NCBI GenBank assembly: GCA_934663645.1
Contig: CAKUKR010000001.1
Location: forward strand, 15,081 to 79,080
Direction of reading: 5' to 3'
DNA: 64,000 nt
Source: an uncultured Muribaculaceae bacterium
GTDB taxonomy: Bacteria; Bacteroidota; Bacteroidia; Bacteroidales; Muribaculaceae
The notes below the pieces were generated by a model. That model was not told the origin of the DNA. It saw only the letters and a program-made list of their open reading frames with translations, and made no database searches. Position 1 is the stretch's first letter; each line of letters begins with the position of its first letter. The translations under genes were made by a program, and so were the position numbers. Positions 1,919 to 16,924 of this stretch are shown in pieces.

Positions 1919-3418
1919 TTATCGTATGATAAGTTTGCGGCCGCCCACAATATACATGCCAGCGGGCAATGATGCCACCTCATCGGCAGTGGCGGCGCGG
2001 CGCACGAGGATGCCAGTGGCGGTGTACACATCGGCAGGATATGCCTCGGTGTCGGCTGCCACGCCCTCAACGCCGCCAACAGCCTCGCGTATGAACTGGT
2101 CAAACCATGCGGCATACTCGTTGAGGTGAGTCGTGACGCGGGAATATGCCCAGTCGATGTTTACCACATCATACGAGGGCCATATCTTGCCGTTCACCAG
2201 GTATGCGGCGCGGGTCTGTGCATAGAAGCGGTCAACGAAATCGCGTACCTTTACAAGATAGTCAGGATAGAACTTCTCCCACTCCTCAAGGACGATGCGG
2301 CGGAACTCGTTGTACTTCCACAGTTCGGCAATCCATGTAGGCAGCGGCAACTTTTCACCTGAGCCTCCATGATATCGCTCCCTTTCTTCCCAAAACGGTC
2401 CTTTGCGGACACCCGGCTCCCAAGTCCATTCGGAGTCCCATATCGGGCCGAAAGTCCATTTGCCGCCGGCCGGGTGGTACATATAGGTGCTGCCGTAGAA
2501 CGCATCGTAGTTGCACGAGACCTCCTGCACTATGTAGTAGCGTGCGAGTGAGGTCAAGTCGAACCAGTCCTGCCAGTCGGACGTGAGTTTGTCAGGATTG
2601 TAGACAGCATGAGTCGCGCCTGTCATCTGTTCGGTAATCCACTGCAACTGCTCATCTGACATCACTTCAGGGGTTTTGATGGTAAACCGGCTTCTTTTCC
2701 CAGCCTCCGTTCCATAATAATTTTGATAAACCCTTATTTGCGGAGAGTCCTGAGTATTATCAATCTCCACGAGCCAGCCGTCGTCAATGGTTGCCGGGTC
2801 GGTGTTGTTCTCGGGCTGCTCGTTGATTTCGAGCCGTCCCTCGTCGATGCGGACAGTCTCGGAAAAGGCGTAGACACCTACGTTGACACCGTTCAGCACT
2901 ACCTCGACAGGGTAAGAGCGCGGCACCCAGCCAAGGCCGATGACACGCGCCATCTCGTATGCCGTCTCGCCTTGGATGTAAAGCTGCGTAGGAGGATGGG
3001 CGATCAGCGCGAAATGCTTGCTCTTCGGGAAGCCGAACGGTTTCTGCTTCTTGGTGAACTTCAGCTTGAACGGCTTCTTGCTCATCTGCCATGAGCTGTT
3101 GCCTCGGCCGCGTATCTGCAGCGTTATAGGCTCATCGGCAGAGCCGAGGGCGTCCACACCCTCCGCACCCATCGGGTCTATCCAAAGGGTAGCGTTGAGG
3201 TATTCCTCTTTGCTCACTACTGGCGCGCCGCCCTCGGTGTTGACATACACCACCGGCAGAGTGCCGGAGACAGGCTGTGCAATGGGTTCATTATCGTTGT
3301 CTGGGTTGTCAGGATAAGAGCCGGGGCGTTCGACGGATTGGGCGTGCAGCAGCGGCGCTGCCGCCAGACAGGCGGCCAAGGACAATGCCTTGACCACCTT
3401 CAGTCGGTTGAAAATCAT
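1919..3418 (-). CDS. Secreted CotH-kinase-family protein with C-terminal sorting tail
   Basis: 499 residues. A signal peptide (about 1-26, ending LLHAQS) is followed by a CotH-like domain over about residues 50-400. Family-type motifs are LQIRGRGNSSW, KPFKLKF and GPIWDSEWTW; the aspartates in CNYDAFYGS and IWDSEW sit where CotH kinases place metal or catalytic acids. The last ~70 residues end in LPAGMYIVGGRKLIIR, the form of a type IX-secretion sorting domain. CotH proteins are atypical surface protein kinases in spore formers; the role of the secreted Bacteroidetes forms is not known to me. It is the last gene of a run with two endonuclease I genes, 54 bases after the previous stop, and is followed by a terminator. 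Whether it phosphorylates or modifies the co-encoded surface proteins is open. Confidence 0.85.
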   Translation of the reverse strand: MIFNRLKVVKALSLAACLAAAPLLHAQSVERPGSYPDNPDNDNEPIAQPVSGTLPVVYVNTEGGAPVVSKEEYLNATLWIDPMGAEGVDALGSADEPITLQIRGRGNSSWQMSKKPFKLKFTKKQKPFGFPKSKHFALIAHPPTQLYIQGETAYEMARVIGLGWVPRSYPVEVVLNGVNVGVYAFSETVRIDEGRLEINEQPENNTDPATIDDGWLVEIDNTQDSPQIRVYQNYYGTEAGKRSRFTIKTPEVMSDEQLQWITEQMTGATHAVYNPDKLTSDWQDWFDLTSLARYYIVQEVSCNYDAFYGSTYMYHPAGGKWTFGPIWDSEWTWEPGVRKGPFWEERERYHGGSGEKLPLPTWIAELWKYNEFRRIVLEEWEKFYPDYLVKVRDFVDRFYAQTRAAYLVNGKIWPSYDVVNIDWAYSRVTTHLNEYAAWFDQFIREAVGGVEGVAADTEAYPADVYTATGILVRRAATADEVASLPAGMYIVGGRKLIIR

Positions 3419-3472
3419 GCTAATAAATTTGCTGTGGATGAATTATATCGTATTGAGGATAAGATTTTCGGG

Positions 3473-5095
3473 TCAGCGCACCACCACCTTTGAGGCGGAC
3501 AGACCGTCGGAGTATGTGACGATATACACGCCCGGGGCTACCGTCAGCGTGATGTCGCCGGCGAGCGAGCCGGAAGCCACGCGGCGGCCGGCCATGTCAT
3601 AGACAGCGGCGGAGGACACGGGAGTGCCTCCCGCTGTGATGCAGAGCATGCCGTGAGCCGGAGAATATGCGGTCGCGGAGTAGACGACAGACGACATTTC
3701 GTCCACTCCCACATTCTTGCGGCGTGTCACCTCGAGGTTGTCGATTTCCCATGTGCCGGAAACAGCGTCGGTCGAGACATAGTGGAAACCGATCTCGATT
3801 TCCTTGCCCACGAATGGGGTCAGGTCAATGTCGCCGGCATCGATGAACTTCCAGCTTGTGCCTTCGCACATGTTGGGTATCTCCACCGTCTGCCATTCGC
3901 CGCCCGCCTCGCGCACGCCCAGCGAGCAGCTTGAGGCGAACGTCTCGGCGTCGTTGAACTTGTTGCCGGCATGGCGGAACTTCATGGCGGCAGCGGCACT
4001 CTCCGTCAGGTCGAGGACAGGGGAAATCGCCCAAGCGTCAGCCGCATGGCACTTGCCGTTGTAGTACGCGCCGCCCACCAGGCCGTAGCGGTCGTCGATC
4101 TTCCAGATATAGGATGCGTCAGAAGGCATCGACACGTTGTCGTAAGTGAATTTCTCGAAGCCGGAAGTCTTGTCAGCCTGCAGTATGACCTCGTCAGTAT
4201 CGGGATCCGGGTCCGGATCGGGATCGGGATCCGGGTCCGGGTCAACCGAACCAGTAGTGCTGAACGCCTCGTTCTGCTTGCTGCCCCAGATATATTCCGC
4301 CAGTTCGGGGTAGTCGATAAACGGATTGCGGTTGCCCTGAATCTTGTATATCTCCTCGTTGCGGTTTCGCTCCTTGTCGTCCACAGGGTCATTCTTGGCC
4401 CATTCGAGCAGCATGGTGTATGCCCAGGGGCGCAGCGAGGGGTATGAGCTGCCGTCAAACATGAAGTTGCGGTCAGTCTGCGTCGCGCTCCAGTTAATGT
4501 CGTCATAGATGGTGAACATGTAGAAGTAGGTGCGGGCAAAGTCCCCCTTGTACTCGTCAGCCGGCTCAAAGACCCATGACGCGCCGCCGCAAGAGCCGCT
4601 TGCCGGGCTGCCGACAGTGGTGACGCCGTTGGTCCATTTCACCGTCGCCACTATGCCGAGGGGATAGTTGGCCTTGCGGTTGTTAGCCTCCGAGTCCGAG
4701 GGGTTCAGGTGGAACAGGTCGCAGTATGCGGCGTTCTTGGTCTTGCCCCACCATGAGTTGGGGACAGAGTGCTCTATGTTCATTCCGCCGTGTCCGCCGG
4801 ATACAGACACATTGTTGTCGCTGTACATGTCCCACCACACCTTCTGTCCATTGACTGTGCGCACGTCGGTCTGCCGGAAAGCGTCCCACGTGTCATCGCC
4901 ATACGAAACCTGTCTGTGGCTTGCGGCAGCAGATTTGGCAGCAGCCTTTAGGGCAGACTGCTTCTTCCCCTCGAGTGCAGAATAGTACCCACTCGGGATT
5001 GCCGCCGACACCGTCAGGCAAGTGGCTGACAGCACAACGGCAGCTGAGATGAGAGAAATAACTTTATTCATATTGAAAATGTCTTTTGTTTTCAT
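3473..5095 (-). CDS. Secreted endonuclease I with jelly-roll and sorting domains
   Basis: 540 residues from the first ATG; an ATG eight codons later (5071) gives MNKVISLISAAVV, a better signal-peptide start. The endonuclease I domain (about 33-265) shows the catalytic His motif EHSVPNSWWG and the metal-site motif DLFHLNPSDSEANNRKANYP, typical of the EndA/NucM/Vvn beta-beta-alpha-metal nucleases that cut DNA and RNA without sequence specificity. A Asp-Pro repeat linker (about 289-305) leads to a choice-of-anchor-J jelly-roll domain (about 308-460) and a C-terminal sorting domain ending VAPGVYIVTYSDGLSASKVV. The protein is therefore expected at the cell surface or outside. Its jelly-roll is closely similar to that of the lipoprotein at 9238-10254. 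The gene starts 4 bases (or 28 with the later start) after the preceding endonuclease gene. Confidence 0.92.
   Translation of the reverse strand: MKTKDIFNMNKVISLISAAVVLSATCLTVSAAIPSGYYSALEGKKQSALKAAAKSAAASHRQVSYGDDTWDAFRQTDVRTVNGQKVWWDMYSDNNVSVSGGHGGMNIEHSVPNSWWGKTKNAAYCDLFHLNPSDSEANNRKANYPLGIVATVKWTNGVTTVGSPASGSCGGASWVFEPADEYKGDFARTYFYMFTIYDDINWSATQTDRNFMFDGSSYPSLRPWAYTMLLEWAKNDPVDDKERNRNEEIYKIQGNRNPFIDYPELAEYIWGSKQNEAFSTTGSVDPDPDPDPDPDPDPDTDEVILQADKTSGFEKFTYDNVSMPSDASYIWKIDDRYGLVGGAYYNGKCHAADAWAISPVLDLTESAAAAMKFRHAGNKFNDAETFASSCSLGVREAGGEWQTVEIPNMCEGTSWKFIDAGDIDLTPFVGKEIEIGFHYVSTDAVSGTWEIDNLEVTRRKNVGVDEMSSVVYSATAYSPAHGMLCITAGGTPVSSAAVYDMAGRRVASGSLAGDITLTVAPGVYIVTYSDGLSASKVVVR
4198..4250 (-). 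repeat. Short tandem repeat coding an Asp-Pro linker
   Basis: Repeated 6-base units of the type GATCCG/GATCGG encode alternating Asp-Pro residues between the nuclease and jelly-roll domains. Such a repeat could change length by slippage without a frameshift, since units are a multiple of three. Confidence 0.7.
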
Positions 5096-5099
5096 TTGG

Positions 5100-6812
5100 T
5101 CAGAATACTGTCGTCTTGCAGGGGCGCAGAGCCTGGTCTGTCGTCACCACGTACACGCCGGCAGGGAGCGAGAACGTCTCGCCGCCGCATACTGAAGCGC
5201 GGTGCAGCACCAGCGTGCCGCTCATGTTGTAGACACGCAGGTTGGTATGCACGGTGTCGAGCAGCACCACGAAGCCGCCCTCTGCCGCTCCTATTGTCAG
5301 GGGCTGGTCGCCGTGGATGCCGACCACGCCGGCGCCGCCGGGAATGACGATGACGTTTGAGGGTTCGGAGAGGTATCCGAGGCGCGACGAGCGCACATAG
5401 TAGGACTCGGTCACATCTGGTGTGCGGCCGTATATGTCGAGGCTGTTGGTGTCGGAATTGAGTTCCTCGCTCTCCGTGTCGTCGCCGTCATAGCGCACTC
5501 GCGTCACCACATAGTTGTCTATCACCTGAAGGGTGGCGTTCCAGTTGGCGGTATACGAATAGTCGGAGAGGTTAGTAGCGTCGGTTGCGGTGAGGGTTTC
5601 CAGTTCAGGCACGGGGAACGCCTTGCCGGAGAGGCTGACGTTGATCTGCTGCCCGAGCGGCAGTCCGCCGTCGTACAGCGTCAGGTTGGCATGGTGCTCA
5701 CCCTCCGAAGTCGGGCGGTAGACTATGTTGAGCAGGAACGACTCGCCCTGGTTCAGCTGCAGAGCGGGTATTGTATTGGCAGAAACGGTGAACATGGTGC
5801 GGTCAGTGCCTGTGATGCGCACAGAGAGGTTTGATGTCAGGTTGCTGCCGGCCACGGTGAGCTGCGCCGAGAGGGTCTTGCCGAGAGCCACATCGCCGAA
5901 AGCCAGCTCGTCGCCATTCTCGGGCGATGTCACCTCGGGGTCGCCGGTGAACGGAGGGGTTACCTGCCCGCCCTGGTCGGCGATATGGAACGTCTCCGTG
6001 GTGCGAGTGCCCCAGATGTATTCCGCCAGCTCGGGAAAATCGATGAAAGGGTTGCGGTTGCCCTGCGCGTTCTGCACAGCGTCGTTGCGCACCTTCTCCT
6101 TCTCGTCCACCGGGTCCATTCGGCTCCATTGCAGGAGCATATCGACGGCCCATGTGCGGAGCGTGGGGTATGAGTTGGACTGGAACATGTAGTTGATAGC
6201 CCAGGGAAGGTCGTCATAGACTGTAGCCATATAGAAAATGGCGCGGGCAAAATCGCCCTTGTAGCGGTCATCGGGCTCGAACACGTTGCCGCTGCCGCCG
6301 CCCATGCCGGTCTTGGCTGGGCCGATTTTCGACACGCCGTTGTCAAACGTGGTGCTGGCGCACTCGCCGAAGGCGTAGTTCAGCTTGGCCTGGTTTGCCG
6401 GCCCGTCAGAGGGGTAAAGGTTCCACAAGTCGCTGTAAGCGGGCGTGTAGTCAACGCTGCCGCTGCTCTTCCACCACGACTTTGGGACGGAGTGCTCACG
6501 CTGCATACGGTTGCGCGAGAAACTGCCGAGGGCGGACTCTCCGCCGCGTATCAAGTAGATGTTGTCGCTGTACATGTCCCACCAACGCTTGCTGCCGTTG
6601 TACAGGTCGGCATAAACGTCGGTGTACTGCCAGTATACGGGCAGCTGCTGGTAGATGAGCTGCGTGTGCGACTGGACACAGGCCTTGGCGGCAGCTTTCA
6701 GCTTGTCACGGCTCTTCCCCTCCATGGCGTCATAGTAGCCTTGGGGATATGCAGCCCATGCACAGCCGACAGCAGCGCAGAGAGCCAGTGCCAGCAATAA
6801 AAGTTTCTTCAT
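5100..6812 (-). CDS. Secreted endonuclease I, second paralogue
   Basis: 570 residues with a clear signal peptide (MKKLLLLALALCAAVGCAWA). The endonuclease I domain (about 21-270) has REHSVPKSWW and DLWNLYPSDGPANQAKLNYAFG; the second motif differs from the 3473-5095 paralogue (DLWNL against DLFHL), so metal coordination or activity may differ. It is followed by an ASPM/SPD-2/Hydin-like beta domain (about 300-405, LAFGDVALGKTLSAQLTVAG), a fibronectin-III-like domain (about 410-500) and a sorting domain ending LPAGVYVVTTDQALRPCKTT. It lacks the jelly-roll of its neighbour. A strong hairpin (6846-6880) lies in the 91-base gap upstream and could set its expression apart from the receptor genes. Confidence 0.92.
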   Translation of the reverse strand: MKKLLLLALALCAAVGCAWAAYPQGYYDAMEGKSRDKLKAAAKACVQSHTQLIYQQLPVYWQYTDVYADLYNGSKRWWDMYSDNIYLIRGGESALGSFSRNRMQREHSVPKSWWKSSGSVDYTPAYSDLWNLYPSDGPANQAKLNYAFGECASTTFDNGVSKIGPAKTGMGGGSGNVFEPDDRYKGDFARAIFYMATVYDDLPWAINYMFQSNSYPTLRTWAVDMLLQWSRMDPVDEKEKVRNDAVQNAQGNRNPFIDFPELAEYIWGTRTTETFHIADQGGQVTPPFTGDPEVTSPENGDELAFGDVALGKTLSAQLTVAGSNLTSNLSVRITGTDRTMFTVSANTIPALQLNQGESFLLNIVYRPTSEGEHHANLTLYDGGLPLGQQINVSLSGKAFPVPELETLTATDATNLSDYSYTANWNATLQVIDNYVVTRVRYDGDDTESEELNSDTNSLDIYGRTPDVTESYYVRSSRLGYLSEPSNVIVIPGGAGVVGIHGDQPLTIGAAEGGFVVLLDTVHTNLRVYNMSGTLVLHRASVCGGETFSLPAGVYVVTTDQALRPCKTTVF

Positions 6813-6845
6813 CAGTTGAACGGATGTATTCTTGTTTCAGATTTA

Positions 6846-6880
6846 ATTCCCCGCTGCGGTGATGTCCGCAAGCGGGGAAT
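6846..6880 (-). promoter_or_regulatory. Strong intercistronic hairpin inside the operon
   Basis: A 10-bp perfect inverted repeat (6846-6855 with 6871-6880) extends after one bulged A by a further 4 bp (6856-6859 with 6866-6869) around a 6-base loop. It lies between the lipoprotein stop and the endonuclease start. No T-run follows on the minus strand, so an mRNA-processing or stability hairpin, or a weak attenuator, is more likely than a terminator. Confidence 0.6.
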
Positions 6881-6903
6881 ATGTTCAGGACGGGGTCAAC
6901 CCC

Positions 6904-9216
6904 TTATTTCACGAGGTAAACCTCGAAGGTGTTGACGCGGTATGTTGCATTGAAGGCGAATGTCACGCTGCTTACGCCGGCGGTGGAAGTCCAGGTGACA
7001 GTATTGCCGTCGCGGGTGACAGTGCCGGCATCGGCAGTGGGAGCGAGCGCACTGTTGGCGTTGCTGCCCTTCATGACAATCTTGGCGACCTTGCCTGAGG
7101 GCACTTTTATGGTCATGCCCGAGCCGTTGTAGAAGCGGACAGTCGGAGTGCCGGATGTCGCGGTTGACATGATGTTGTACCATGCAGTTGCGGTGCCGGT
7201 GCCTGAAGTGAATGTGAATGCGTAGTCGCCTATAGTGAAGCCGCGCAGGGGCTGCCAGCGTTCAGCCTGGCCATTTGACGAACCCTCCTTAGGCTCTTCA
7301 GCGTGATGCTCGCCGTCAAAGTTGGCAGCGTCGGCAGCCTTGAGGACTACTGCATCCTGCAGGTCAGGAGTCGGGCCGGGAGTCGGATCAGGGTCGGGAG
7401 TTACCGAGCCGCCGGTGGACTTGCCGATGACCACGTTGTCTACGGCATACGTTGTGCTGTTGTCCTTGCCGCCGGCTGCGGAGTAGTACTTGAAGCCGAC
7501 ATATACGATGCCGCTGAACGCGCTGAGGTCAACCTCGCCGGACTTCACCCAGTCGCTGTAGCCGCTTGCCGGGGGTGTGGCAAGTGCCGGGCTCAGCTTG
7601 GTGAGCTGTGCGCTTGCGGGGTTGTCGGTAGTCATGACATATACCTCGAGATAGCAGTCGTTTGCAGAGTATGCAGCCTGCGAGTCGAAAGAAAGCACTT
7701 TCTTCTCTGATTTCGACAGGTCGATGGCAGGAGTGATGAGCCAGTTCTCATACGGGCCGCCAGTGGCAGTGCCCAGGTATGCGCTCACGTTAGCGAAATT
7801 GTTGTTGTTGAACGTCTTGATGTACCAGCCGGAGAGGTTTCCCTTGACAGCAGCAAGCTTCCACCCCTTGGCGGTATAGTCGGCTATCTTGGAAGCCTCC
7901 TCGAAGTCGCAAGAGAGTGTGCCGGGAGCGTCGGTCACAGGGGGATTGGGATTGTCAACACCCTCGATGGTGAACTCGTCGGTCGTGCCAGCATTGCCGG
8001 TCACGCCGCCCATGCCCAGAAGGCGCGCGAATGTGCCACGGCAGGAGATGGCCTTGCCGTACACGCCGGGGTTGTCGAGCAGGTTGCCTGCGTTGCGGAA
8101 CGCCGAGCCGCTCTTGAGTTCAACCACCACGCACTGCGTGTAGTCGCGGGTGTCGGCAGTCTCGCCGATGACGAGGTTGTTGTCCATGTCCACGTCCTTG
8201 CCCCAGATGATGTCCTCGTTTGAGGCCACGGCACTCACGCCGCCCTTGACAGCGCCGACGATGTAGCCCTTGACCCAGCCGGCCGCGCCGGTATCCTGGA
8301 GGCCGAGAGCCTCGCTGACGGTGTAGGGTTCATCCTTCTGGCCCTTGCCGCCGAACATCACGTCGGCCGTAGAGCGCAGCAGCAGCTGCCATGTGCCGTT
8401 GAAGTATGACAGCATGGCGCGGACAGTGCCGGTGCCTTTGGGGAGTGTCTGGTTATAGAATGTCGAGTAGCCCGAAGTGCGCACCACGATGGTGTTGCCG
8501 GCCTCATCGACCAGGTTGCGGTTCTCCGTCTTCTGATAAGTCGAGTAAGTGTTCTCGCCGCCCTGCTCGAAATGCACGTTGCGCAGCTCGACGAGCTGGC
8601 TCTGCATGGCACGTATGCCGGCATTGTCAGTAGGGAGGTCGGAGATTTTCATCACCGTGCAGTACATCCCCTCGGCGGGGGCTTCCTCGCCGTAGTTGAT
8701 GTATGTCAGGTCGGTCGAGGGAAGGCCGTTGAGCTGCGTATGCTCCTCAAACTGCGGGTATATCATGAACGACACCTGCGGCGTGCCGTTGTATTCGCCG
8801 TAGCCGCCTATCTGCTCCAAGCCAGCATACTTGCCGATGTACAGGCCGGTAACGTCCATCACCACTTCCTGGCCTACGCGGTACTGGTTGTAGATGCTGT
8901 TCTGGTTGATAGAGATGGTTATCGCGCCGGTAGCGTCCTGCAAGTAGAGCGACTTGTAGATGTTGCCCGAAGCGTCAGAGGAGATGACACGCCCCTTGAT
9001 GATGTAGTTGGAGCCGTCATCCTTCTGCGGACACTTGATGGCATAGTTGGTGTCGTCCTTCCACATCGCCTCCTTGAGGTCGGCGATAGTGGTGTTGGCC
9101 TGCCAAGTGGCGACAGGCTCCTGTATTCCGGGAGCGTCAAAGTCATCCTGACACGAAGCGAGTGCCGTGACCATGAGCAGCGAGGCTCCCAAATATGATA
9201 ATCTTATTCTTTTCAT
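6904..9216 (-). CDS. Surface lipoprotein with DUF5689 and DUF6359 (OB-fold-like) regions
   Basis: 770 residues. A lipoprotein signal (MKRIRLSYLGASLLMVTALA then SCQDD) predicts lipid anchoring at Cys22; the acidic residues just after the Cys resemble surface-export signals of Bacteroidetes lipoproteins. Residues about 40-290 resemble DUF5689 (YIIKGRVISSDASGNIYKSL, LQDATGAITISIN), and about 295-420 resemble DUF6359 (ALGLQDTGAAGWVKGYIVGA). Both families have OB-fold character, a fold often used to bind nucleic acids. A choice-of-anchor-J-like jelly-roll follows (about 435-610), then a Pro-rich linker (TPDPDPTPGPTPD) and a C-terminal beta domain (628-770). It is 21 bases downstream of the next lipoprotein gene and in the same direction as the TonB receptor, which suggests a substrate-binding partner for that receptor. 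Family names are from recall of motifs. Confidence 0.75.
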   Translation of the reverse strand: MKRIRLSYLGASLLMVTALASCQDDFDAPGIQEPVATWQANTTIADLKEAMWKDDTNYAIKCPQKDDGSNYIIKGRVISSDASGNIYKSLYLQDATGAITISINQNSIYNQYRVGQEVVMDVTGLYIGKYAGLEQIGGYGEYNGTPQVSFMIYPQFEEHTQLNGLPSTDLTYINYGEEAPAEGMYCTVMKISDLPTDNAGIRAMQSQLVELRNVHFEQGGENTYSTYQKTENRNLVDEAGNTIVVRTSGYSTFYNQTLPKGTGTVRAMLSYFNGTWQLLLRSTADVMFGGKGQKDEPYTVSEALGLQDTGAAGWVKGYIVGAVKGGVSAVASNEDIIWGKDVDMDNNLVIGETADTRDYTQCVVVELKSGSAFRNAGNLLDNPGVYGKAISCRGTFARLLGMGGVTGNAGTTDEFTIEGVDNPNPPVTDAPGTLSCDFEEASKIADYTAKGWKLAAVKGNLSGWYIKTFNNNNFANVSAYLGTATGGPYENWLITPAIDLSKSEKKVLSFDSQAAYSANDCYLEVYVMTTDNPASAQLTKLSPALATPPASGYSDWVKSGEVDLSAFSGIVYVGFKYYSAAGGKDNSTTYAVDNVVIGKSTGGSVTPDPDPTPGPTPDLQDAVVLKAADAANFDGEHHAEEPKEGSSNGQAERWQPLRGFTIGDYAFTFTSGTGTATAWYNIMSTATSGTPTVRFYNGSGMTIKVPSGKVAKIVMKGSNANSALAPTADAGTVTRDGNTVTWTSTAGVSSVTFAFNATYRVNTFEVYLVK

Positions 9217-9237
9217 TGCTTGTAGTGTTAGAATGAC

Positions 9238-10254
9238 TTACTTGCCGGCATTGACCTTGATTGCGTCGATTTCCCATGAGCCGGCTATCTCGTCGGTTGA
9301 CACGTAGTGGAAACCGAACTGTATCTTCTTGCCAGCGAATGATGTCAGGTCGACGTTGCCGGAATCGATGAATGTCCACGAAGTGCCTTCGCACATATTG
9401 GGCACGGCGACCATGGTCCATTCGCCGCCGTCCTCGCGTACAGCCACAGTACAGCTTGCAGCGAAGTTAGCTGCCGACTCAAACTTGTTTCCGGCGTGGC
9501 GGAATGTCAGCACAGCCGACTTGTAGCCGGTCAGGTCGATGGTCGGCGAAATAGCCCATGCCTCTGAAGCGTGGCACGAACCGCCGAAGAACGACGATGC
9601 CACAAGTCCGTACTTGGCATCCACCTTCCATACGTATGTCGAACCGGAGGGGAGTACCACGTTCTCGAATGTGAAGGCATCAAGGCCAGACGACTTGTCA
9701 GCCTGGTATACCTGCTCGCCAGCTGGGACATCAGGTGTGTCGGGAGTTTCCTCCTCAATGCCGACCTTGTCCCAGTTGTATGCGCTGACGCTCTTGAAGC
9801 CGGCAGTGCCGAAATAGCGGGCTGCGCTGCCCTTGATAGTCACCTGCTTGCCCAAGTTAGCTGGGTTGTCAACGAGGTTGAGGGCAGCACGAGCGTCAGA
9901 GCCGCTCACGAGCTGCACGGGGACGCACTTGGTGATGTCACGCTCGTCGGGAGTGGCTGCCACAAGCATATTGGACGCCACTGTGGCGGGTGTCTCGAAC
10001 TTGACATTTTCCACGGTGTAAGCGTTGGAAATGCTGGTGTCGATCCAGCCGACGATGTAGCCGGTCATCCACACGTTGTCGCCAGTGAACCCCTCGACCA
10101 CCTGGCCCACGGAAACGGGGTTGTCCCACTTGCCCGAGCCGTAATCCTCCGGCACGATTACCGGGGGATACTCCTTGTCATCGCTGCACGAGGAGATGAA
10201 CTGACCGCCCACCAACGCAAGTGCCAACGAAATGTATAATGCAATTTTCTTCAT
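9238..10254 (-). CDS. DUF6359/jelly-roll surface lipoprotein
   Basis: 338 residues, with a lipoprotein signal (MKKIALYISLALALVGGQFISS then CSDDKE). Residues about 40-165 look like a DUF6359 OB-fold-like domain (VWMTGYIVGWIDTSISNAYT, NPANLGKQVTIKGSAARYF). Residues about 185-338 form a choice-of-anchor-J jelly-roll (QADKSSGLDAFTFENVVLPS through SWEIDAIKVNAGK). That jelly-roll is strikingly close to the one in the secreted endonuclease at 3473-5095, with shared stretches such as FRHAGNKF, NMCEGTSW and GFHYVSTD. It lies 36 bases after the TonB receptor gene. A surface-exposed binding component of the same uptake system is the simplest reading. Confidence 0.78.
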   Translation of the reverse strand: MKKIALYISLALALVGGQFISSCSDDKEYPPVIVPEDYGSGKWDNPVSVGQVVEGFTGDNVWMTGYIVGWIDTSISNAYTVENVKFETPATVASNMLVAATPDERDITKCVPVQLVSGSDARAALNLVDNPANLGKQVTIKGSAARYFGTAGFKSVSAYNWDKVGIEEETPDTPDVPAGEQVYQADKSSGLDAFTFENVVLPSGSTYVWKVDAKYGLVASSFFGGSCHASEAWAISPTIDLTGYKSAVLTFRHAGNKFESAANFAASCTVAVREDGGEWTMVAVPNMCEGTSWTFIDSGNVDLTSFAGKKIQFGFHYVSTDEIAGSWEIDAIKVNAGK

Positions 10255-10290
10255 TGTCTTAGTCGTTATTTGTTGTCATGCACACGGGGG

Positions 10291-13086
10291 TCAGAAGCGT
10301 ATTCCGAAGTTGAAGAATATGCGGATGCCCTGCGCGTAGTAATACTTGTTGGGGAACTTGTTGACGTTGTAGTTGGTGTAGTCAAACTTACCCTCCTGAT
10401 AGCCGCCGGTCTGTATGTTGCGGTTGTTGAGCACGTTGTTGACGCTGAGGTTGAAGTTGAGCGAACCGAAGCGTGTGTAAATCACCTTGCCCACAGAGAG
10501 GTTGAGGACGAAGGCTGACTTGAGCTTCTGCTGGTATGCTATCTCCTCGACCTTTGCCTGAACTGCCTCCTGAATGGTCTGTCCCTCGGCGGGAGTTACA
10601 ACAGTGTAGAGTTCGGGCATGGCCTCGTGCCGTGTCGGCGAGAGGTCCACATAGCCGTCAGCGAAATAGTTGGCGTTGATGCCGAAGAACCACATGCCGG
10701 GAGCTGCATAGTCCAAGCCGAGGCTGTAAGCCTGCTGCGGAGTGCCGCCGACGTGGAAGCCCTTCAGGTAAACGCGGCGCGTCACGTCATCCTGCGCGCC
10801 GTTCTCGTATGAGCGCACGCCCATCGGGTTGTTGCGGTAGGTGTATGAAGCGATAGTCCCGGCACCGGTCAATGTCAGCGAGGGGATAATCTTGTATGCG
10901 AAGCCGAGCTCAACACCGGTATAGCGTGTCTGCATGCCAGACATGGCATAGTTCATGAACGTGTTGAGCTGGTAGTCGTAGAAACCCGTGCGGCGCATTC
11001 CGTTCCACATCTCGGTGTAGAAGCCGGTGACGCTTCCGCGGAAGTTCTTGTAGTTCCATACATAGCCGAGGTCAGCGGAGAGGAAACGCTCAGACTGGAG
11101 GTTGGAAACAGCGGTGTCCTTGATACGCGGCGAAACGTATGCGTTGTCAGGGAGCGGGGCGCGAGTGCCGTAAGCGGCGTGTGCCACGAAGTAGTTGCGG
11201 CCGTTGAGCTTGTATGTCGCGCCGGCCTTGATGGCAGCGTTGTCGAATGTGTGGCGTTTGCCAGAGCCGAGCGAGTTCTCAGGGGCGCGGCCGTTCTGCA
11301 TGTTGCCGTGGCGCATGAAGTTGGTATAGCTCATCTCGATGCCGTAGTTCACGTCCCAGTGCAGGGTGTTGATCTGGTTCTGCAGCCAAGCGCGGGCTAT
11401 GTAGGAGCGGATGTTGTAGTCATAACCGAACTTGTCGCCCTCATACACCTTGCGGTTGGGGTTGCGCAGGTCGTTCTGGAGGATTTCGGGGTTGTTGGGG
11501 AAGTCGCGCTCTGCGAAGTTGTCAACGTCGCGCCAGAACTCAGCGCCGAGGAGGTTCTTGATGGTCTTGTAGTAATGGCTCTCGGTATAGGAGAAGCTGA
11601 TGCCGCCCTGGAGCTGGCTGTGGTCGTTGAGGCGGTGGTTGACATACGAGTTGAACATCCACTGGTTGAAGTTGCTGTGGCGTTTCTCGAGTATGTATGT
11701 AGCCTGGCCTTTCAGCTCGGGGTTGCGGTCGTAAAGTATGGAGTTGGTATAGTTGGCCTGGTAGAGTGAGTTCCAGTCTATCTGACGGAAGCTCTTGTCG
11801 TTCATCCACAGGTTGCGGTAAGTCTCATACTGCTCCATTTGCGCATCGTAGAGGGGAGTGCCCTCCTCGGCGGTGGGATAGTAATATGAGGGGAGGTAGC
11901 GGTAGTAGTCGGGACGCGGGTCAGCGGCCTGATACCAGTTGAGGGCAGAGCTTGAGTAGTTGCTCGAGCGGAAGCCGACACCAGTGTTGACAACAGTGCC
12001 CTTGGTGGGTTTCCAGATCCAGTTGATGAGGGCTGAGGGGTCGAATGCCTCAACCACCTTTGCAGCCTTCTTCTTGCCGTCGAGATAACCCCACTGCGGG
12101 TTGTAGAGGTTGTTGCCTGCCAGGTCGTAAGCCTCTTGCGTAGCAGCGGAGTTTGTGGCACGCTGTGTGGGGTTGCCCCAAGTTGAGATGTTCAGCGAGT
12201 GCTTCTCGTTGAATATCTTCTGCAGCGAGAGTGCGTAGCCGAAAGAGTCGTACCACGTGCCTTCGATGACACCCTCGGGAGAGTAGCGGCCGATGATTGA
12301 AGCGGAGAACGCCCAGCCGTTCTTTGTCACGCCGGTGTTGTACTGCAGCATGGCACGCATCATGTAGTTGGAGTTGGTGTAGCTGACGTTGCCACGGAAG
12401 CCGGCAGCATATTCCGAGGCGTAGGTGGTGAAATTGGTCGCGCCGCCCACCATGCCGAAGCCGTAATTGGAGTTCTGGATGCCAGGGTTGATGGTCTTGT
12501 TGCGGAACGCGCTGGAGGTCATGCCGCCGAGGCCAGAATAGTTGAAGCGGCCGCGCATAGCGTCATTGAAGTTAAAACCGTTGATGTAGCCGGCGTTCCA
12601 GGTCTGGTCGTAGCCGCGCATGCGGAAACGTGTGACGGAGAAGTTGTAGTTGGCCGTCTGGTAATACACGTCGTCGTTTGCGCCCTGTATCGTGCCGATG
12701 GACTGTGTCAGCCCCTCGTCGTCGTATGCAGTTTCGTCGTCAGAGTTCTGGTCGTCGGGGAGGAGGTTGATGGCGTCAAACTGCGGGTTGAGCTTGATTT
12801 CGTCGAGCTCGCGCACGATGCCTTTGACAATGTCCACTTCGACGGAGAAGTCATCATAGCCGTAGGCTATGATCTCGAGTTGAGCCGTTCCCGGCTCGGC
12901 GTTTGAAATGGTGAACCGGCCGTCAGCGCCGCTGACCACGAACACGGACTGTCCGCCCAGCATCACGGTGGCGTCGGCAATGGGCTTGCCGTTACGGCCG
13001 TCCACCAATGTGCCTTTCACGCCCGTTTGAGCCAACGAGGGCAGTGCCAGACACAGAAGCAGTGTCAATAGTAGTTTAATTCGCAT
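10291..13086 (-). CDS. TonB-dependent outer-membrane receptor
   Basis: 931 residues. Signal peptide 1-19 (MRIKLLLTLLLCLALPSLAQ), then a carboxypeptidase-regulatory-like domain (about 22-105, TGVKGTLVDGRNGKPIADAT), an Asp-rich stretch (DDQNSDDETAYDDEGLTQSI), a plug-like region and a long beta-barrel ending in the aromatic C-terminus GIRIFFNFGIRF expected for BAM insertion. Such receptors use TonB energy to import bulky substrates across the outer membrane. The gene sits between a secreted EEP nuclease and two OB-fold-like lipoproteins, not beside a SusD gene, so this is not a classical glycan (PUL) pair. Nucleic acid fragments are the substrate suggested by context; this is inference. Confidence 0.88.
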   Translation of the reverse strand: MRIKLLLTLLLCLALPSLAQTGVKGTLVDGRNGKPIADATVMLGGQSVFVVSGADGRFTISNAEPGTAQLEIIAYGYDDFSVEVDIVKGIVRELDEIKLNPQFDAINLLPDDQNSDDETAYDDEGLTQSIGTIQGANDDVYYQTANYNFSVTRFRMRGYDQTWNAGYINGFNFNDAMRGRFNYSGLGGMTSSAFRNKTINPGIQNSNYGFGMVGGATNFTTYASEYAAGFRGNVSYTNSNYMMRAMLQYNTGVTKNGWAFSASIIGRYSPEGVIEGTWYDSFGYALSLQKIFNEKHSLNISTWGNPTQRATNSAATQEAYDLAGNNLYNPQWGYLDGKKKAAKVVEAFDPSALINWIWKPTKGTVVNTGVGFRSSNYSSSALNWYQAADPRPDYYRYLPSYYYPTAEEGTPLYDAQMEQYETYRNLWMNDKSFRQIDWNSLYQANYTNSILYDRNPELKGQATYILEKRHSNFNQWMFNSYVNHRLNDHSQLQGGISFSYTESHYYKTIKNLLGAEFWRDVDNFAERDFPNNPEILQNDLRNPNRKVYEGDKFGYDYNIRSYIARAWLQNQINTLHWDVNYGIEMSYTNFMRHGNMQNGRAPENSLGSGKRHTFDNAAIKAGATYKLNGRNYFVAHAAYGTRAPLPDNAYVSPRIKDTAVSNLQSERFLSADLGYVWNYKNFRGSVTGFYTEMWNGMRRTGFYDYQLNTFMNYAMSGMQTRYTGVELGFAYKIIPSLTLTGAGTIASYTYRNNPMGVRSYENGAQDDVTRRVYLKGFHVGGTPQQAYSLGLDYAAPGMWFFGINANYFADGYVDLSPTRHEAMPELYTVVTPAEGQTIQEAVQAKVEEIAYQQKLKSAFVLNLSVGKVIYTRFGSLNFNLSVNNVLNNRNIQTGGYQEGKFDYTNYNVNKFPNKYYYAQGIRIFFNFGIRF

Positions 13087-13127
13087 ATTCTTATCGGTTA
13101 TTGTTTTAATATCAAGTTGTTATAGCC

Positions 13128-14201
13128 TCACTTGCGACGTACACGCAGGAATATCTCGGTGGGCAGGTGGTCGGAATAGCCGTTAGTCCACACTCCGGAG
13201 GAGTATGTGCGCAGCGGATAGCCCACATACTGGCCGCTCTGCTGAAGCAGAAAGTCCTTGTCGTTCCACACCTTGGCGTTGAAATATTCCAGAGGGTTCT
13301 CGCCCTGTGCCGTCAGCTCGTAGCTGACGATGATCTGGTCAAAGAGATTCCAGCCGCTACGGTAGATGTACGAGCCGATGCCGTCGTCGAGCTTCTTCCA
13401 GAAGGGGTTGAAGTATCCACCCTTGGCAGCGTCTTCCATCTTCTTGACCGCGCCGAGAGTCTTGGCGCACGAGCGGTCGTAAGGGTCGTCGTTGAGGTCG
13501 CCCATGATGATCACGCCCATGTTTGGGTCTATGCGGTGCAGCGAATCAGCGATATGGCGTGTCAGCATAGCCGCCGCGTCGCGCAGTGGCGCACTCTTGC
13601 TGCCGCCGCCTCGCCGCGAGGGCCAGTGGTTGACTATCACACCCACACGCGCCGGGCCGAGCAGCCCGACCACGCACATCTGGTCACGGGTGCGGAAATT
13701 GGGCAGCGAGTCGATGAACAGCGTGTGGTTGGTCACATTGATGGGGCGGAAAAGCTTGGGATTGTACAGCACGCTGACATCGATGCCGCGCAAGTCGGGC
13801 GAGTCATGGTGTATGATCTGCAGATTGAGGCCGCGCAGGCTCTCGTCTTTGACCAGGTCCTCAAGCACGGTGCGGTTCTCCACCTCGCTCACGCCGATTA
13901 TGGCAGGGCCCTCGGGGGTGCTCTTGGTGGTCAGCTGCGAGATGGCATACGCCATGTTGTGTATCTTGTTCCAGTACTTGTGCCCGTCCCACTTGCGGCT
14001 GCCCTTGGGGCTGAACTCGAGGTCGTACTTGCCGTTGTTGTTGATGGTGTCAAACAGGTTCTCCTGGTTGTAGAAGGCGACACCGTATACTTGCGGGCGG
14101 GCCTGTGCCGGCTTCTGCGTCTGTGCGGTGACAGCCGCCCCGGCAAGCAGCAACGCCGCCGCTGCTGCCGCCAATATCCTCCCTTTCTTCATTGTTTTCA
14201 T
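13128..14201 (-). CDS. Secreted endonuclease/exonuclease/phosphatase (EEP) family protein
   Basis: 357 residues with a signal peptide (MKTMKKGRILAAAAAALLLA ... TAQ); a start at the second Met would also work. EEP/DNase I-like active-site motifs appear in order: FYNQENLFDT, GVSEVENR (metal-binding Glu), VNHWPSRRGG (His), MGDLNDDPYD (Asp/Asn) and YSDHLPTEIFL (terminal Asp-His pair). These enzymes cleave phosphodiester bonds in nucleic acids or phospho-substrates. It lies 41 bases after deoC and 41 bases before the TonB receptor gene, in the same run as two endonuclease I genes, so a nucleic acid substrate in the periplasm or outside the cell is favoured. Confidence 0.9.
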   Translation of the reverse strand: MKTMKKGRILAAAAAALLLAGAAVTAQTQKPAQARPQVYGVAFYNQENLFDTINNNGKYDLEFSPKGSRKWDGHKYWNKIHNMAYAISQLTTKSTPEGPAIIGVSEVENRTVLEDLVKDESLRGLNLQIIHHDSPDLRGIDVSVLYNPKLFRPINVTNHTLFIDSLPNFRTRDQMCVVGLLGPARVGVIVNHWPSRRGGGSKSAPLRDAAAMLTRHIADSLHRIDPNMGVIIMGDLNDDPYDRSCAKTLGAVKKMEDAAKGGYFNPFWKKLDDGIGSYIYRSGWNLFDQIIVSYELTAQGENPLEYFNAKVWNDKDFLLQQSGQYVGYPLRTYSSGVWTNGYSDHLPTEIFLRVRRK

Positions 14202-14242
14202 CTGGTTTTCGATTGTTATGGTCTATGACGCGCCACGGCGTG

Positions 14243-15130
14243 TCAGAAATACTTCACTTCCTCACCCTCCATGGACGAGAGCAGTGCGTTGGCAAGGCTG
14301 CTTGCGCCGATGCGGAAGAGGTCGTGACAGAGCCACTCCTCGCCGAGGACATCGCGCACCACGGCGTAATAGCCCAGCGCGTCGGCTGTGCTGCGTATGC
14401 CGCCCGAGGCCTTGAAGCCCACCTTGCGACCGGTCTTCTCGTAATACTCCTTGATGCAGCTGCACATCACGTATGCCGCCTCGAGCGACGCGCCAGGGTA
14501 CATCTTGCCGGTCGAAGTCTTGAGGAAGTCGGCCTCGCTCCACAGGGCAAGCACCGATGCCTTCTTGATGTTCTCGGCCGTGCGCAACGCGCCTGTCTCG
14601 AGTATCACCTTCAGCTTGCCGCCGCGCACCGTGTGCTTCAGCTCCGTCAGCTCGTCGCAGAGGTCCTCGTAATTCTCGTCGGCAAACATGCCGAGGGGGA
14701 AGACCACGTCCACCTCGCTCGCGCCGGCCTCGACTGCGAGGGCGCAGTCAGCCACCTTGACGGCGGTGAACGTCTGGCTCGAAGGGAAACACCCCGCCAC
14801 GACAGCCACATCCACTCCCGGCACGTCGAGGTGCGTGCGCACCACGTCGGCGAAATTGCTGTACACGCATATCGCCGCCACGTTGCGGTATTGCGGGTAG
14901 TCATTGTCGAAATCGTTGACACGCTGCGTGAAGCGTGCTACGCTTTTGACGGAGTCCTCGCTGCTCAGCGTAGTCAGGTCGATCGAGCTGAACAGGAAGC
15001 GGTAAACGTCCTGCGTGTCATACTGCGACACATTCTCCATGATGCGTGCCACCTCGGCAGCGACGCGAGCGTCGTCGCCGGTCACGCGGCTGTCGGCTAT
15101 TGCCTTGTTGTATCTGTCCATCATCTCCAT
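14243..15130 (-). CDS. deoC: Deoxyribose-phosphate aldolase
   Basis: 295 residues; starts MEMMDRYNKAIADSR, with a nearby alternative Met. Motifs typical of DeoC are present: VDVVFPLGMF, LKVILETGAL, FLKTSTGKMYPGAS (Schiff-base region) and KVGFKASGGIRS (phosphate-binding loop with the activating Lys). It cleaves 2-deoxyribose 5-phosphate to glyceraldehyde 3-phosphate and acetaldehyde in the cytoplasm, the last step in using deoxyribose from DNA. It has a -7 element at 15219-15226 and is the first gene of the run containing the secreted nucleases and TonB receptor. In Bacteroides relatives deoC follows uvrC, dtd and mazG; here those are not adjacent. Confidence 0.95.
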   Translation of the reverse strand: MEMMDRYNKAIADSRVTGDDARVAAEVARIMENVSQYDTQDVYRFLFSSIDLTTLSSEDSVKSVARFTQRVNDFDNDYPQYRNVAAICVYSNFADVVRTHLDVPGVDVAVVAGCFPSSQTFTAVKVADCALAVEAGASEVDVVFPLGMFADENYEDLCDELTELKHTVRGGKLKVILETGALRTAENIKKASVLALWSEADFLKTSTGKMYPGASLEAAYVMCSCIKEYYEKTGRKVGFKASGGIRSTADALGYYAVVRDVLGEEWLCHDLFRIGASSLANALLSSMEGEEVKYF

Positions 15131-15695: not shown

Positions 15696-16454
15696 TTATT
15701 CCTGCACTGCCTTCACAGGACGCACTCCTATTCCGATGCAACGCAGGACATAGAAAGGATAATGGTCAGCATCCAGTTCATCATCAGGACCATAGAATGC
15801 ATAGCAGTCCTCATAGTACCAATATGTCGTGTTCAAATCTGAAGACATATAGTAGCCATATTCACCAGCGTAACCATACCCGTATTTCTCATCATTGTAT
15901 ATGCCATTTGCCGGCAGGAATATACTGTTTCCGTTACGTCCAGTCACCTTGTACCCCTTCGCGGCATCATCCCATGTCCAGACACAGTTCTGCTCAAGCT
16001 CTTCCCACTCAGCACGAGTCGGTATGTGCCAATCCGGCCCAAGGTTTTGCATGGCAGCATCGTCTGCATCCTCGAGCTTATTGATATTGTCAACCATGCC
16101 ATAGTCCTCATCGTTGTTATACTTAGTCAACGTGTGAACATCCCCTTGAGCGTACTTGTAGGTAGCCCAGCTGTATGTTTCCTTTGGCGATGTTTCCGCC
16201 CAGGCGTAGAAGTCCCCATACTCCTGAGGATCCGTCGCGCCAAGGTTGCACGAAGCCCACTTCACGCTCAGGCCGAGATCAACAGCTTGAACCCCATCAG
16301 GCATCTCGCTGTCATCAAGGAAAACAATCTTCTCCACGTCAGCAGCACGATACTCAGACACAGTCCCATTGGACATATAGATCTTCAGACCTTGCGCCTG
16401 CGTTGAAAAAGCGGTCATCATCACCGCCATGACAAATATGTTTGCGAGTCTCAT
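15696..16454 (-). CDS. Secreted FISUMP-type (Fibrobacter major paralogous domain) protein
   Basis: 252 residues with a signal peptide (MRLANIFVMAVMMTAFSTQA). The core (about 55-250) carries the pattern AVDLGLSVKWASCNLGA, YGDFYAWAETSPKETYSWAT, DWHIPTRAEWEEL and a C-terminal GIGVRPVK, which is the form of FISUMP proteins that are abundant in Bacteroides and related gut bacteria. Their function is unknown; they are secreted or surface proteins. The start overlaps the stop of the upstream gene by 4 bases (ATGA), so the two are translationally coupled. Base composition looks lower in GC than the flanking genes. Confidence 0.8.
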   Translation of the reverse strand: MRLANIFVMAVMMTAFSTQAQGLKIYMSNGTVSEYRAADVEKIVFLDDSEMPDGVQAVDLGLSVKWASCNLGATDPQEYGDFYAWAETSPKETYSWATYKYAQGDVHTLTKYNNDEDYGMVDNINKLEDADDAAMQNLGPDWHIPTRAEWEELEQNCVWTWDDAAKGYKVTGRNGNSIFLPANGIYNDEKYGYGYAGEYGYYMSSDLNTTYWYYEDCYAFYGPDDELDADHYPFYVLRCIGIGVRPVKAVQE

Positions 16455-16924
16455 TTCTTTGAAATTTTATATGTTTTCGATTCTGTCTTCACCAAATATA
16501 TCCCTGACGGAAGTCCTCCGACGGGACACGTTACACATCCATCTGCCGCAGCCTTCATGCAGGCGAGCAGACGCCCATCCATTCCATACAGCCAAACATC
16601 GGCCCCTGTGACAAGCCCTGACAATTCCAGGACCTCATTTGAAAGGGAGAACTTGACAGTCACAGCATCAAGTTCCTCCACAGAGCCGGGGTCAGAATTG
16701 GCAAACGTGAACTTGTCAACTTCCGAAATTTCAAAAGAATACCGGCTACCGGCACAAGTCAAGGAAAGAGTGTTCTCCTGAAATTGCACCTCGGGTCTGT
16801 CTGACAAAGCGAACTTCGTCTGTCCACCCGACTTTGACCATACTACCACAAACTCCGGCGAAGCTGCAAACAATCCAGCGACTGCCGTTATGGCGCATGT
16901 CAACAGCATTGATAATCGTTTCAT
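16451..16924 (-). CDS. Small secreted protein with C-terminal sorting-like domain
   Basis: 157 residues. Signal peptide about 1-20 (MKRLSMLLTCAITAVAGLFA), a short N-terminal beta region (FVVVWSKSGGQTKFALSDRP) and a C-terminal region ending GGLPSGIYLVKTESKTYKIS, the shape of a type IX-type sorting domain with almost no cargo. The N-terminal region resembles the segment that precedes the FISUMP domain in the downstream protein (KIYMSNGTVSEYRAADVEKI), so the pair may share a domain. It is the first gene of a two-gene operon with its own promoter (16992-17021) and is divergent from the TPR/AraC regulator, which may control it. Function unknown. Confidence 0.65.
   Translation of the reverse strand: MKRLSMLLTCAITAVAGLFAASPEFVVVWSKSGGQTKFALSDRPEVQFQENTLSLTCAGSRYSFEISEVDKFTFANSDPGSVEELDAVTVKFSLSNEVLELSGLVTGADVWLYGMDGRLLACMKAAADGCVTCPVGGLPSGIYLVKTESKTYKISKK

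What the first reader, a model, noticed from the sequence alone, without database searches (positions are those of the whole stretch)
1919..15130. Possible extracellular nucleic-acid scavenging operon
Eight minus-strand genes with gaps of 4-91 bases run from a promoter to a terminator: deoC, a secreted EEP nuclease, a TonB receptor, two surface lipoproteins with OB-fold-like regions, two secreted endonuclease I proteins and a CotH-like protein. Seen directly: gene order, spacing, nuclease motifs and signals. Known: endonuclease I and EEP enzymes cut nucleic acids, and DeoC uses deoxyribose phosphate. Inferred: they form one system that cuts, captures, imports and consumes DNA, a nucleic-acid analogue of a polysaccharide utilisation locus with no SusD.
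Basis: partly seen in the sequence, partly recalled or inferred. Interest (0 to 1): 0.75.

Follow-up and report, generated by a model that had tools for sequence, protein, structure and literature searches.

The report
Gut bacterial DNA-import operon
A gut bacterium carries, in one run of genes, relatives of the two surface proteins that a distant cousin needs to take up DNA from its surroundings, together with DNA-cutting enzymes and a DNA-sugar enzyme, which suggests a machine that imports DNA for food, for genetic exchange, or both.

Summary
The eight minus-strand genes are real (gaps 4-91 bp); the promoter and terminator are not supported. The core is a known thing in a new setting: the barrel protein (10291-13086) and DUF5689 lipoprotein (6904-9216) are homologues of Riemerella anatipestifer RA0C_RS04915/RS04920, whose clean deletions abolish natural transformation (PMC8459023). 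I found what I take to be that Riemerella locus; an EEP nuclease gene adjoins the pair there too. DUF5689 adjoins the barrel in 110 of 112 Bacteroidota loci and EEP lies within 6 kb in 79; DUF5689 was found in 29/29 genomes with the barrel and 0/20 without. Colinear endonuclease I plus deoC mark one small clade that holds the window; CotH was found in none of the 112. Best reading: an outer-membrane DNA importer of the Riemerella kind, here placed in one operon with nucleases and deoC, so probably also used for feeding (inferred). Against: the essential Riemerella HHH protein was not found in 47 other genomes. New variant of a known kind; it makes DNA passage through the Bacteroidota outer membrane testable in gut bacteria.

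The parts
14243..15130 (-). deoC, deoxyribose-phosphate aldolase, first gene of the run; part of the clade-specific enlargement
   Evidence: TIGR00126 136 bits over cut-off 117.3; linked to the barrel in 5 of 112 other loci
13128..14201 (-). EEP nuclease with a signal-peptide-like start; probably periplasmic or surface
   Evidence: PF19580 350.6 bits; 33% identical to the EEP next to the Riemerella pair, E 3e-66; within 6 kb of the barrel in 79 of 112 loci
10291..13086 (-). TonB-dependent-transporter-like barrel, homologue of RA0C_RS04915; proposed DNA channel
   Evidence: 30% identity along the whole length to L104 barrel, E 1e-118; fold matches to TonB-dependent transporters
9238..10254 (-). 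Second lipoprotein, DUF6359 + choice-of-anchor J, lipobox SSC then SDDKE
   Evidence: PF19886 117.7 bits; NF038128 46.9 bits, cut-off 30
6904..9216 (-). DUF5689 + DUF6359 + choice-of-anchor J lipoprotein, homologue of RA0C_RS04920; proposed surface DNA binder
   Evidence: PF18942 199.2 bits; NF052645 172.6 bits, under its cut-off of 475; 30% identity over the DUF5689 part to L104, E 1e-24
5100..6812 (-). Endonuclease I protein, secreted, weak type IX tail
   Evidence: PF04231 154.1 bits; TIGR04183 16.6 bits, cut-off 23
3473..5095 (-). Endonuclease I protein with choice-of-anchor J domain, secreted, near-threshold type IX tail
   Evidence: PF04231 168.7 bits; NF038128 40.4 bits, TIGR04183 21.7 bits, cut-off 23
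1919..3418 (-). CotH-like protein at the end of the run; probably not part of the system
   Evidence: PF08757 121.3 bits; no homologue found in 112 related loci by a single-sequence search

Best explanation
The core of the operon is an outer-membrane DNA importer of the kind that Riemerella needs for natural transformation. The DUF5689 lipoprotein, with its partner lipoprotein, binds extracellular DNA at the cell surface; the TonB-dependent barrel passes it into the periplasm with energy from TonB; the EEP nuclease cuts it there or at the surface. In the window's clade two secreted endonuclease I proteins and DeoC have joined the same run of genes, so that DNA is also shortened outside and its deoxyribose used inside: the same door, used at least in part for feeding. 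Shown here: gene order, homology, linkage, co-occurrence, restriction of the enlarged form to one clade. Shown by others in Riemerella: each core gene is essential for transformation, and tonB mutants lower it. Inferred: DNA as the direct substrate, the site and order of cutting, co-transcription, and nutritional use.
For: Clean deletions of RA0C_RS04915 and RS04920 gave no detectable transformants (PMC8459023). Locus with the published order of recA, comEC, barrel and lipoprotein found in G467, with an EEP gene beside the barrel; its barrel is 94% identical to a protein named R. anatipestifer. Window barrel, lipoprotein and EEP are homologous to its three. DUF5689 within 6 kb and on the barrel's strand in 110/112 loci, EEP within 6 kb in 79/112 in both orientations. 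DUF5689 in 29/29 genomes with the barrel, 0/20 without. Enlarged operon forms one clade, support 0.905. tonBA and tonBB mutants lower transformation in R. anatipestifer. Foldseek matches of the lipoprotein model include DNA-bound tandem OB folds. In F. johnsoniae two neighbouring EndA genes are induced by phosphate depletion (FC column 4.66 and 4.13, PMC8115612).
Against: The HHH protein essential in Riemerella was found in only 2 of 49 genomes, both Riemerella-like (single-sequence search). EEP also occurs in 15/20 genomes without the barrel and was not a reported hit in the Riemerella screen. The top Foldseek match of the lipoprotein model is a glycan-binding protein. DeoC and endonuclease I linkage is rare (5 and 10 of 112). 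F. johnsoniae has the genes yet was not transformable as tested. The tonBB effect was put down to iron. One ComEC among the window's closest relatives has an in-frame stop (G002). The window's own genome is not held. No experiment exists for this locus.
Confidence: 0.6

Rival explanations
1. Competence only: the locus serves genetic exchange. The nucleases are entry nucleases that make ends or remove the strand that is not transported, because ComEC here has no recognisable nuclease domain, and deoC is a passenger.
For: Transformation phenotype of both core genes in Riemerella; ComEC in 7/7 and DprA in 48/49 genomes; no Lactamase_B domain hit in 5 of 5 ComEC proteins scanned, Riemerella's included.
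Against: ComEC and DprA are also common in the control genomes, so they tell little; the Riemerella HHH protein was not found; two secreted endonucleases and DeoC are odd for competence; a ComEC with a stop in G002.
Confidence: 0.2
2. Feeding only: cut, capture, import and consume DNA, a nucleic-acid counterpart of a polysaccharide utilisation locus, with no role in genetic exchange.
For: DeoC, EEP and two endonuclease I genes in one run; precedents for phosphate-responsive SusCD-like systems in Flavobacterium (PMC8115612) and for DNA-derived carbon reaching Lutibacter in sediments (PMC8289736).
Against: The experimentally studied relatives of the two core genes act in transformation; most loci with the pair lack DeoC and endonuclease I within 6 kb.
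Confidence: 0.14
3. The barrel imports something else or shapes the cell surface, and the transformation phenotype in Riemerella is indirect; the nucleases are neighbours without a shared task.
Against: Linkage with nucleases of two unrelated families, and no detectable transformants in either deletion.
Confidence: 0.06

Closest known systems
Riemerella anatipestifer RA0C_RS04915/RS04920 transformation pair (PMC8459023)
   Same: Barrel followed on the same strand by a DUF5689 + choice-of-anchor J lipoprotein; full-length homology; EEP nuclease gene next to the pair
   Different: Window has a second lipoprotein (DUF6359), EEP colinear and not divergent, and deoC and two endonuclease I genes in the run; comEC is not beside it; no transformation data
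Phosphate utilisation systems (PusCD) of Flavobacterium johnsoniae (PMC8115612, passages)
   Same: TonB-type importer with surface lipoprotein and phosphorus-releasing enzymes; that species also induces two EndA nucleases on phosphate depletion
   Different: PusCD is SusCD-like and lies with phosphatases and phosphodiesterases; the EndA genes there are listed as orphans; no SusD family hit here
Polysaccharide utilisation locus (SusCD)
   Same: Works like one in outline: surface binding lipoprotein, TonB-dependent channel, degrading enzymes
   Different: No SusD or glycan enzyme family hit in the eight proteins; not a member
Vibrio cholerae Dns and Xds extracellular nucleases (abstract starts only; families recalled)
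   Same: Two extracellular nucleases that degrade extracellular DNA; as recalled, one endonuclease I and one EEP
   Different: No TonB-type DNA importer in the same operon; uptake in Vibrio is by pilus (recalled)

Membership tests
Riemerella-type transformation pair (RS04915/RS04920) | Barrel homologous along its full length | tested here: met
   blastp 30% over 970 columns, E 1e-118
Riemerella-type transformation pair (RS04915/RS04920) | Adjacent DUF5689 + choice-of-anchor J lipoprotein on the same strand | tested here: met
   in the window the DUF6359 lipoprotein gene lies between the two
Riemerella-type transformation pair (RS04915/RS04920) | Lipoprotein over the curated cut-off of the M949_1556 family | tested here: not met
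   172.6 bits against 475 for the window; L104 reaches 599.3. So a homologue, not a member of that narrow family
Riemerella-type transformation pair (RS04915/RS04920) | ComEC and DprA in the genome | tested here: inconclusive
   Own genome not held; ComEC in 7/7 relatives, DprA in 48/49 genomes; both also common in controls
Riemerella-type transformation pair (RS04915/RS04920) | HHH protein (RS02645 homologue) in the genome | tested here: inconclusive
   Not found in 47 of 47 non-Riemerella genomes by a single-sequence search; distant forms could be missed; own genome not held
Riemerella-type transformation pair (RS04915/RS04920) | Loss of DNA uptake in deletion mutants | not testable with these tools
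   Known for Riemerella only
TonB-dependent transporter | Plugged 22-strand barrel | tested here: inconclusive
   Model matches Fiu, FecA, FhuA by Foldseek, but mean pLDDT is 69.9, the plug region is poor and Pfam Plug and barrel models do not hit
SusCD polysaccharide utilisation locus | SusD homologue and glycan enzymes | tested here: not met
   No such family among the eight proteins in Pfam or NCBIfam
Type IX secretion cargo (the two endonuclease I proteins) | C-terminal sorting domain over the curated cut-off | tested here: inconclusive
   TIGR04183 21.7 and 16.6 bits, cut-off 23; presence of the secretion system not tested

The most novel reading that the evidence does not exclude
Much of the Bacteroidota uses a pilus-free, TonB-driven DNA importer made of this barrel and the DUF5689 lipoprotein, with the neighbouring EEP nuclease as the strand-removing enzyme that ComEC lacks in this phylum; and in one gut clade this competence door has been turned into a DNA-utilisation locus by the addition of surface endonucleases and DeoC.
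Probability: 0.3. Interest if true: 0.87.

Novelty: new variant of a known kind. Interest (0 to 1): 0.68.

Why it matters
How Bacteroidota bring DNA across the outer membrane is open: a 2024 paper on Porphyromonas gingivalis competence says that the step into the periplasm remains unclear and that its pilus is not involved (PMC11532111, section 16). A small gene module whose Riemerella version is essential, found here in 92 of 198 genomes of the window's presumed order and 90 of 119 of its presumed family, makes that question testable in gut bacteria. It bears on gene flow in the gut, and on whether DNA uptake for genes and DNA uptake for food share one machine.

Tried and rejected
CotH as a member: rejected, no homologue found in 112 loci (single-sequence search). 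Promoter and terminator: not supported. HHH_3 family as a marker: uninformative, the strong hits lie in a long frame of about 600-915 aa present in genomes with and without the barrel. DUF1343/NamZ_N, the family of Riemerella RS09020: 25/29 vs 18/20, no association. ComEC near the pair: none in the loci searched, only in the two Riemerella-like loci. A second, weaker barrel group (75-145 bits): one member scanned has Plug and barrel Pfam hits; not counted as this family. Solved structures by sequence: 3 weak hits for the barrel (best E 0.07) and 1 for the lipoprotein (E 0.075). Literature searches gave one paper that deals with this gene pair (PMC8459023); two searches were on M949_1556 and on Vibrio nucleases. 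The library holds open-licence PubMed Central papers only, so absence from print is not claimed. PMC6557517 passages were of no use. VIA-align compared the lipoprotein model mainly through its anchor J domain, so the folds of DUF5689 and DUF6359 are barely tested there; the OB-fold reading rests on Foldseek rows with TM-scores of 0.38 or less by target length.

Choice and dropping of rows. The genome-contig scan was run with one protein, not with an alignment, and returned 7 loci. Of 90 family genomes with a barrel 20 were fetched, of 92 order genomes 20, both chosen for room on the contig and spread of score; of 93 in the family of G217, 20 loci from 19 genomes, chosen for genome size near 2 Mb (to find Riemerella) plus G487; of 46 in the phylum sample all (G001 through L001). 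Split barrels in L059, L060 and L151 were left out of the tree but kept in the linkage counts. L014 (ComEC with a stop) was left out of the ComEC profile. L061-L064 belong to the second barrel group or repeat G205 and were not counted. Loci cut by contig ends were kept and lower the counts. The barrel-negative set was the 20 listed of 29.

Full report
What is there. Eight minus-strand ORFs lie at the stated places with gaps of 41, 41, 36, 21, 91, 4 and 54 bp: deoC, EEP nuclease, barrel, DUF6359 lipoprotein, DUF5689 lipoprotein, two endonuclease I proteins, CotH. The barrel has a CarboxypepD_reg domain but no Pfam plug or barrel hit; its predicted structure (pLDDT 69.9, plug region poor) matches TonB-dependent receptors such as Fiu and FecA. 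Both lipoproteins have a lipobox cysteine followed by acidic residues (CQDD, CSDD; read), as surface lipoproteins of this phylum do (that rule is recalled). The promoter and terminator are not supported.

The lead. The only paper in the library that names DUF5689 is a transposon screen for natural transformation in Riemerella anatipestifer, PMC8459023. I read its abstract, the second part of the Results, the screen and deletion sections, the Discussion, and passages. RA0C_RS04915 is an outer-membrane protein with PF13620; RA0C_RS04920 has DUF5689 and is annotated as choice-of-anchor J. Three insertion mutants hit RS04915, and clean deletions of either gene were below detection. The authors propose, as speculation, that RS04920 binds DNA and RS04915 passes it. 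[quoted passage not shown]

The test of homology. In G467 (one contig of 2,164,087 bp; locus GC 35%) the order is recA, a DinB-like gene, three Sdh-like genes, comEC, a 145-aa gene, a carboxyltransferase, an EEP nuclease, then divergently the barrel and the DUF5689 lipoprotein (the DinB and Sdh names are recalled from the sequence starts). Counted in steps of five this is RS04870 (recA), RS04895 (comEC), RS04915 and RS04920 of the paper; a ComF-like gene and DprA lie about 40-50 kb on. The best named homologue of its barrel is from R. anatipestifer, 94% identical, and its lipoprotein passes the NCBIfam M949_1556 model (599 bits, cut-off 475). So I take G467 for R. anatipestifer or a very near strain. 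The window proteins match its three: barrel 30% along the whole length, E 1e-118; lipoprotein 30% over the DUF5689 part, E 1e-24; EEP 33%, E 3e-66. The EEP gene would be RS04910; the screen table does not list it as a hit, and no deletion of it is in the table.

Distribution. A profile of eight barrels (A1) found full-length members in 46 of 296 genomes of the phylum sample (44 at 390 bits or more, two split), 92 of 198 of the order, 90 of 119 of the family (a few of them fragments) and 93 of 100 of the family of G217. A flavobacterial barrel matched 110 of 120 genomes of its family at E 1e-30, some weakly or in part.

Linkage. In 112 loci (7, 20 family, 20 order, 45 phylum, 20 from the family of G217; 111 genomes) DUF5689 is within 6 kb on the barrel's strand in 110; EEP within 6 kb in 79 (4/7, 13/20, 16/20, 28/45, 18/20), divergent in 67 and colinear in 12; endonuclease I in 10 (3/7, 2/20, 4/20, 1/45, 0/20); DeoC in 5 (3/7, 2/20, 0/20, 0/45, 0/20); CotH in 0. 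So EEP stays near the pair in both orientations. The base rate of endonuclease I genes was not measured. In 49 genomes DUF5689 was found in 29 of 29 with the barrel and 0 of 20 without (Fisher p 4e-14, not corrected for kinship; the positive set was picked by the barrel, all of them at loci or genomes I already held). EEP was in 29/29 vs 15/20 and is single-copy in 41 of the 44 genomes that have it (the second match of G536 is under the cut-off), so it has a life of its own.

The clade-specific part. In a FastTree tree of 110 barrels the loci with deoC, EEP, barrel, lipoproteins and endonuclease I colinear (window, L001, L002, L003, L127) form one clade, support 0.905. Endonuclease I genes also lie near the pair in L147, L149, L148, L151, L093 and L136, in different positions and with different extra domains; some of these may be separate events, but this was not tested. 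The operon in the window is thus an enlarged form of a widespread pair.

The nuclease question. Five of five ComEC proteins scanned, that of G467 included, have the Competence domain and no Lactamase_B hit. That domain degrades the strand that is not transported elsewhere, and transformable species without it are known (PMC12455585, passages). The adjacent EEP nuclease is a candidate for that job in this phylum. Against it: it also occurs without the barrel, and it was not a hit in the Riemerella screen, which with 3,000 mutants may not have been exhaustive.

Feeding or genes. For feeding: deoC and two secreted endonucleases in one run; in F. johnsoniae two EndA nucleases are induced by phosphate depletion (FC 4.66 and 4.13, PMC8115612 passages); Lutibacter, a Bacteroidota, took up carbon from DNA in sediments (PMC8289736 passages). 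For genetic exchange: the Riemerella phenotype, its dependence on tonBA and tonBB (PMC8383284, section 20; the abstract puts the tonBB effect down to iron), ComEC in 7/7 and DprA in 48/49 genomes, both common anyway. Against a full Riemerella-type pathway here: the HHH protein was not found in 47 genomes, one ComEC among the window's closest relatives has a stop (G002), and F. johnsoniae has the genes yet was not transformable as tested. R. columbina transforms better without phosphate (PMC7965970 abstract), R. anatipestifer worse (PMC8383284 abstract), so the phosphate link is unsettled. A member of the lipoprotein's family, M949_1556, is reported to affect antigenicity and pathogenicity (title seen in a reference list), so an indirect role is not excluded. 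I conclude that the importer serves DNA and that in this clade feeding is probably at least part of its use.

Verdict.

Noticed in passing
L093:13052-18952 and L062:3073-8156: A second TonB-type barrel group (846-850 aa) is followed by a protein without Pfam hit and an endonuclease I with bacterial Ig domains: perhaps another barrel + lipoprotein + nuclease set.
   Followed up: partly
L014 (G002:C46) and L011 (G003:C2): ComEC has an in-frame TGA in G002 and a shorter frame in G003 (532 aa against about 660-690 in others); both belong to the window's barrel clade. Assembly error not excluded.
   Followed up: no
L104:2405-12134: In the Riemerella-like genome an EEP nuclease gene lies between comEC and the transformation pair, divergent from the pair.
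   Followed up: yes
genomes G437, G461, G476, G487: Two full-length barrel family members per genome; in G461, G476 and G487 one of them scores about 830 bits, far above the rest of that sample.
   Followed up: no
control genomes: DUF5689 also scores over its cut-off in the Bacillus subtilis control genome, so the domain is not confined to Bacteroidota.
   Followed up: no
window 15696-16924: Two overlapping minus-strand genes upstream of deoC: one weakly FISUMP-like (17.5 bits, cut-off 41.65), one with a weak type IX tail; a TTTG-N18-TAATTTTG promoter-like motif lies about 75 bp before the first. Not part of the run.
   Followed up: no
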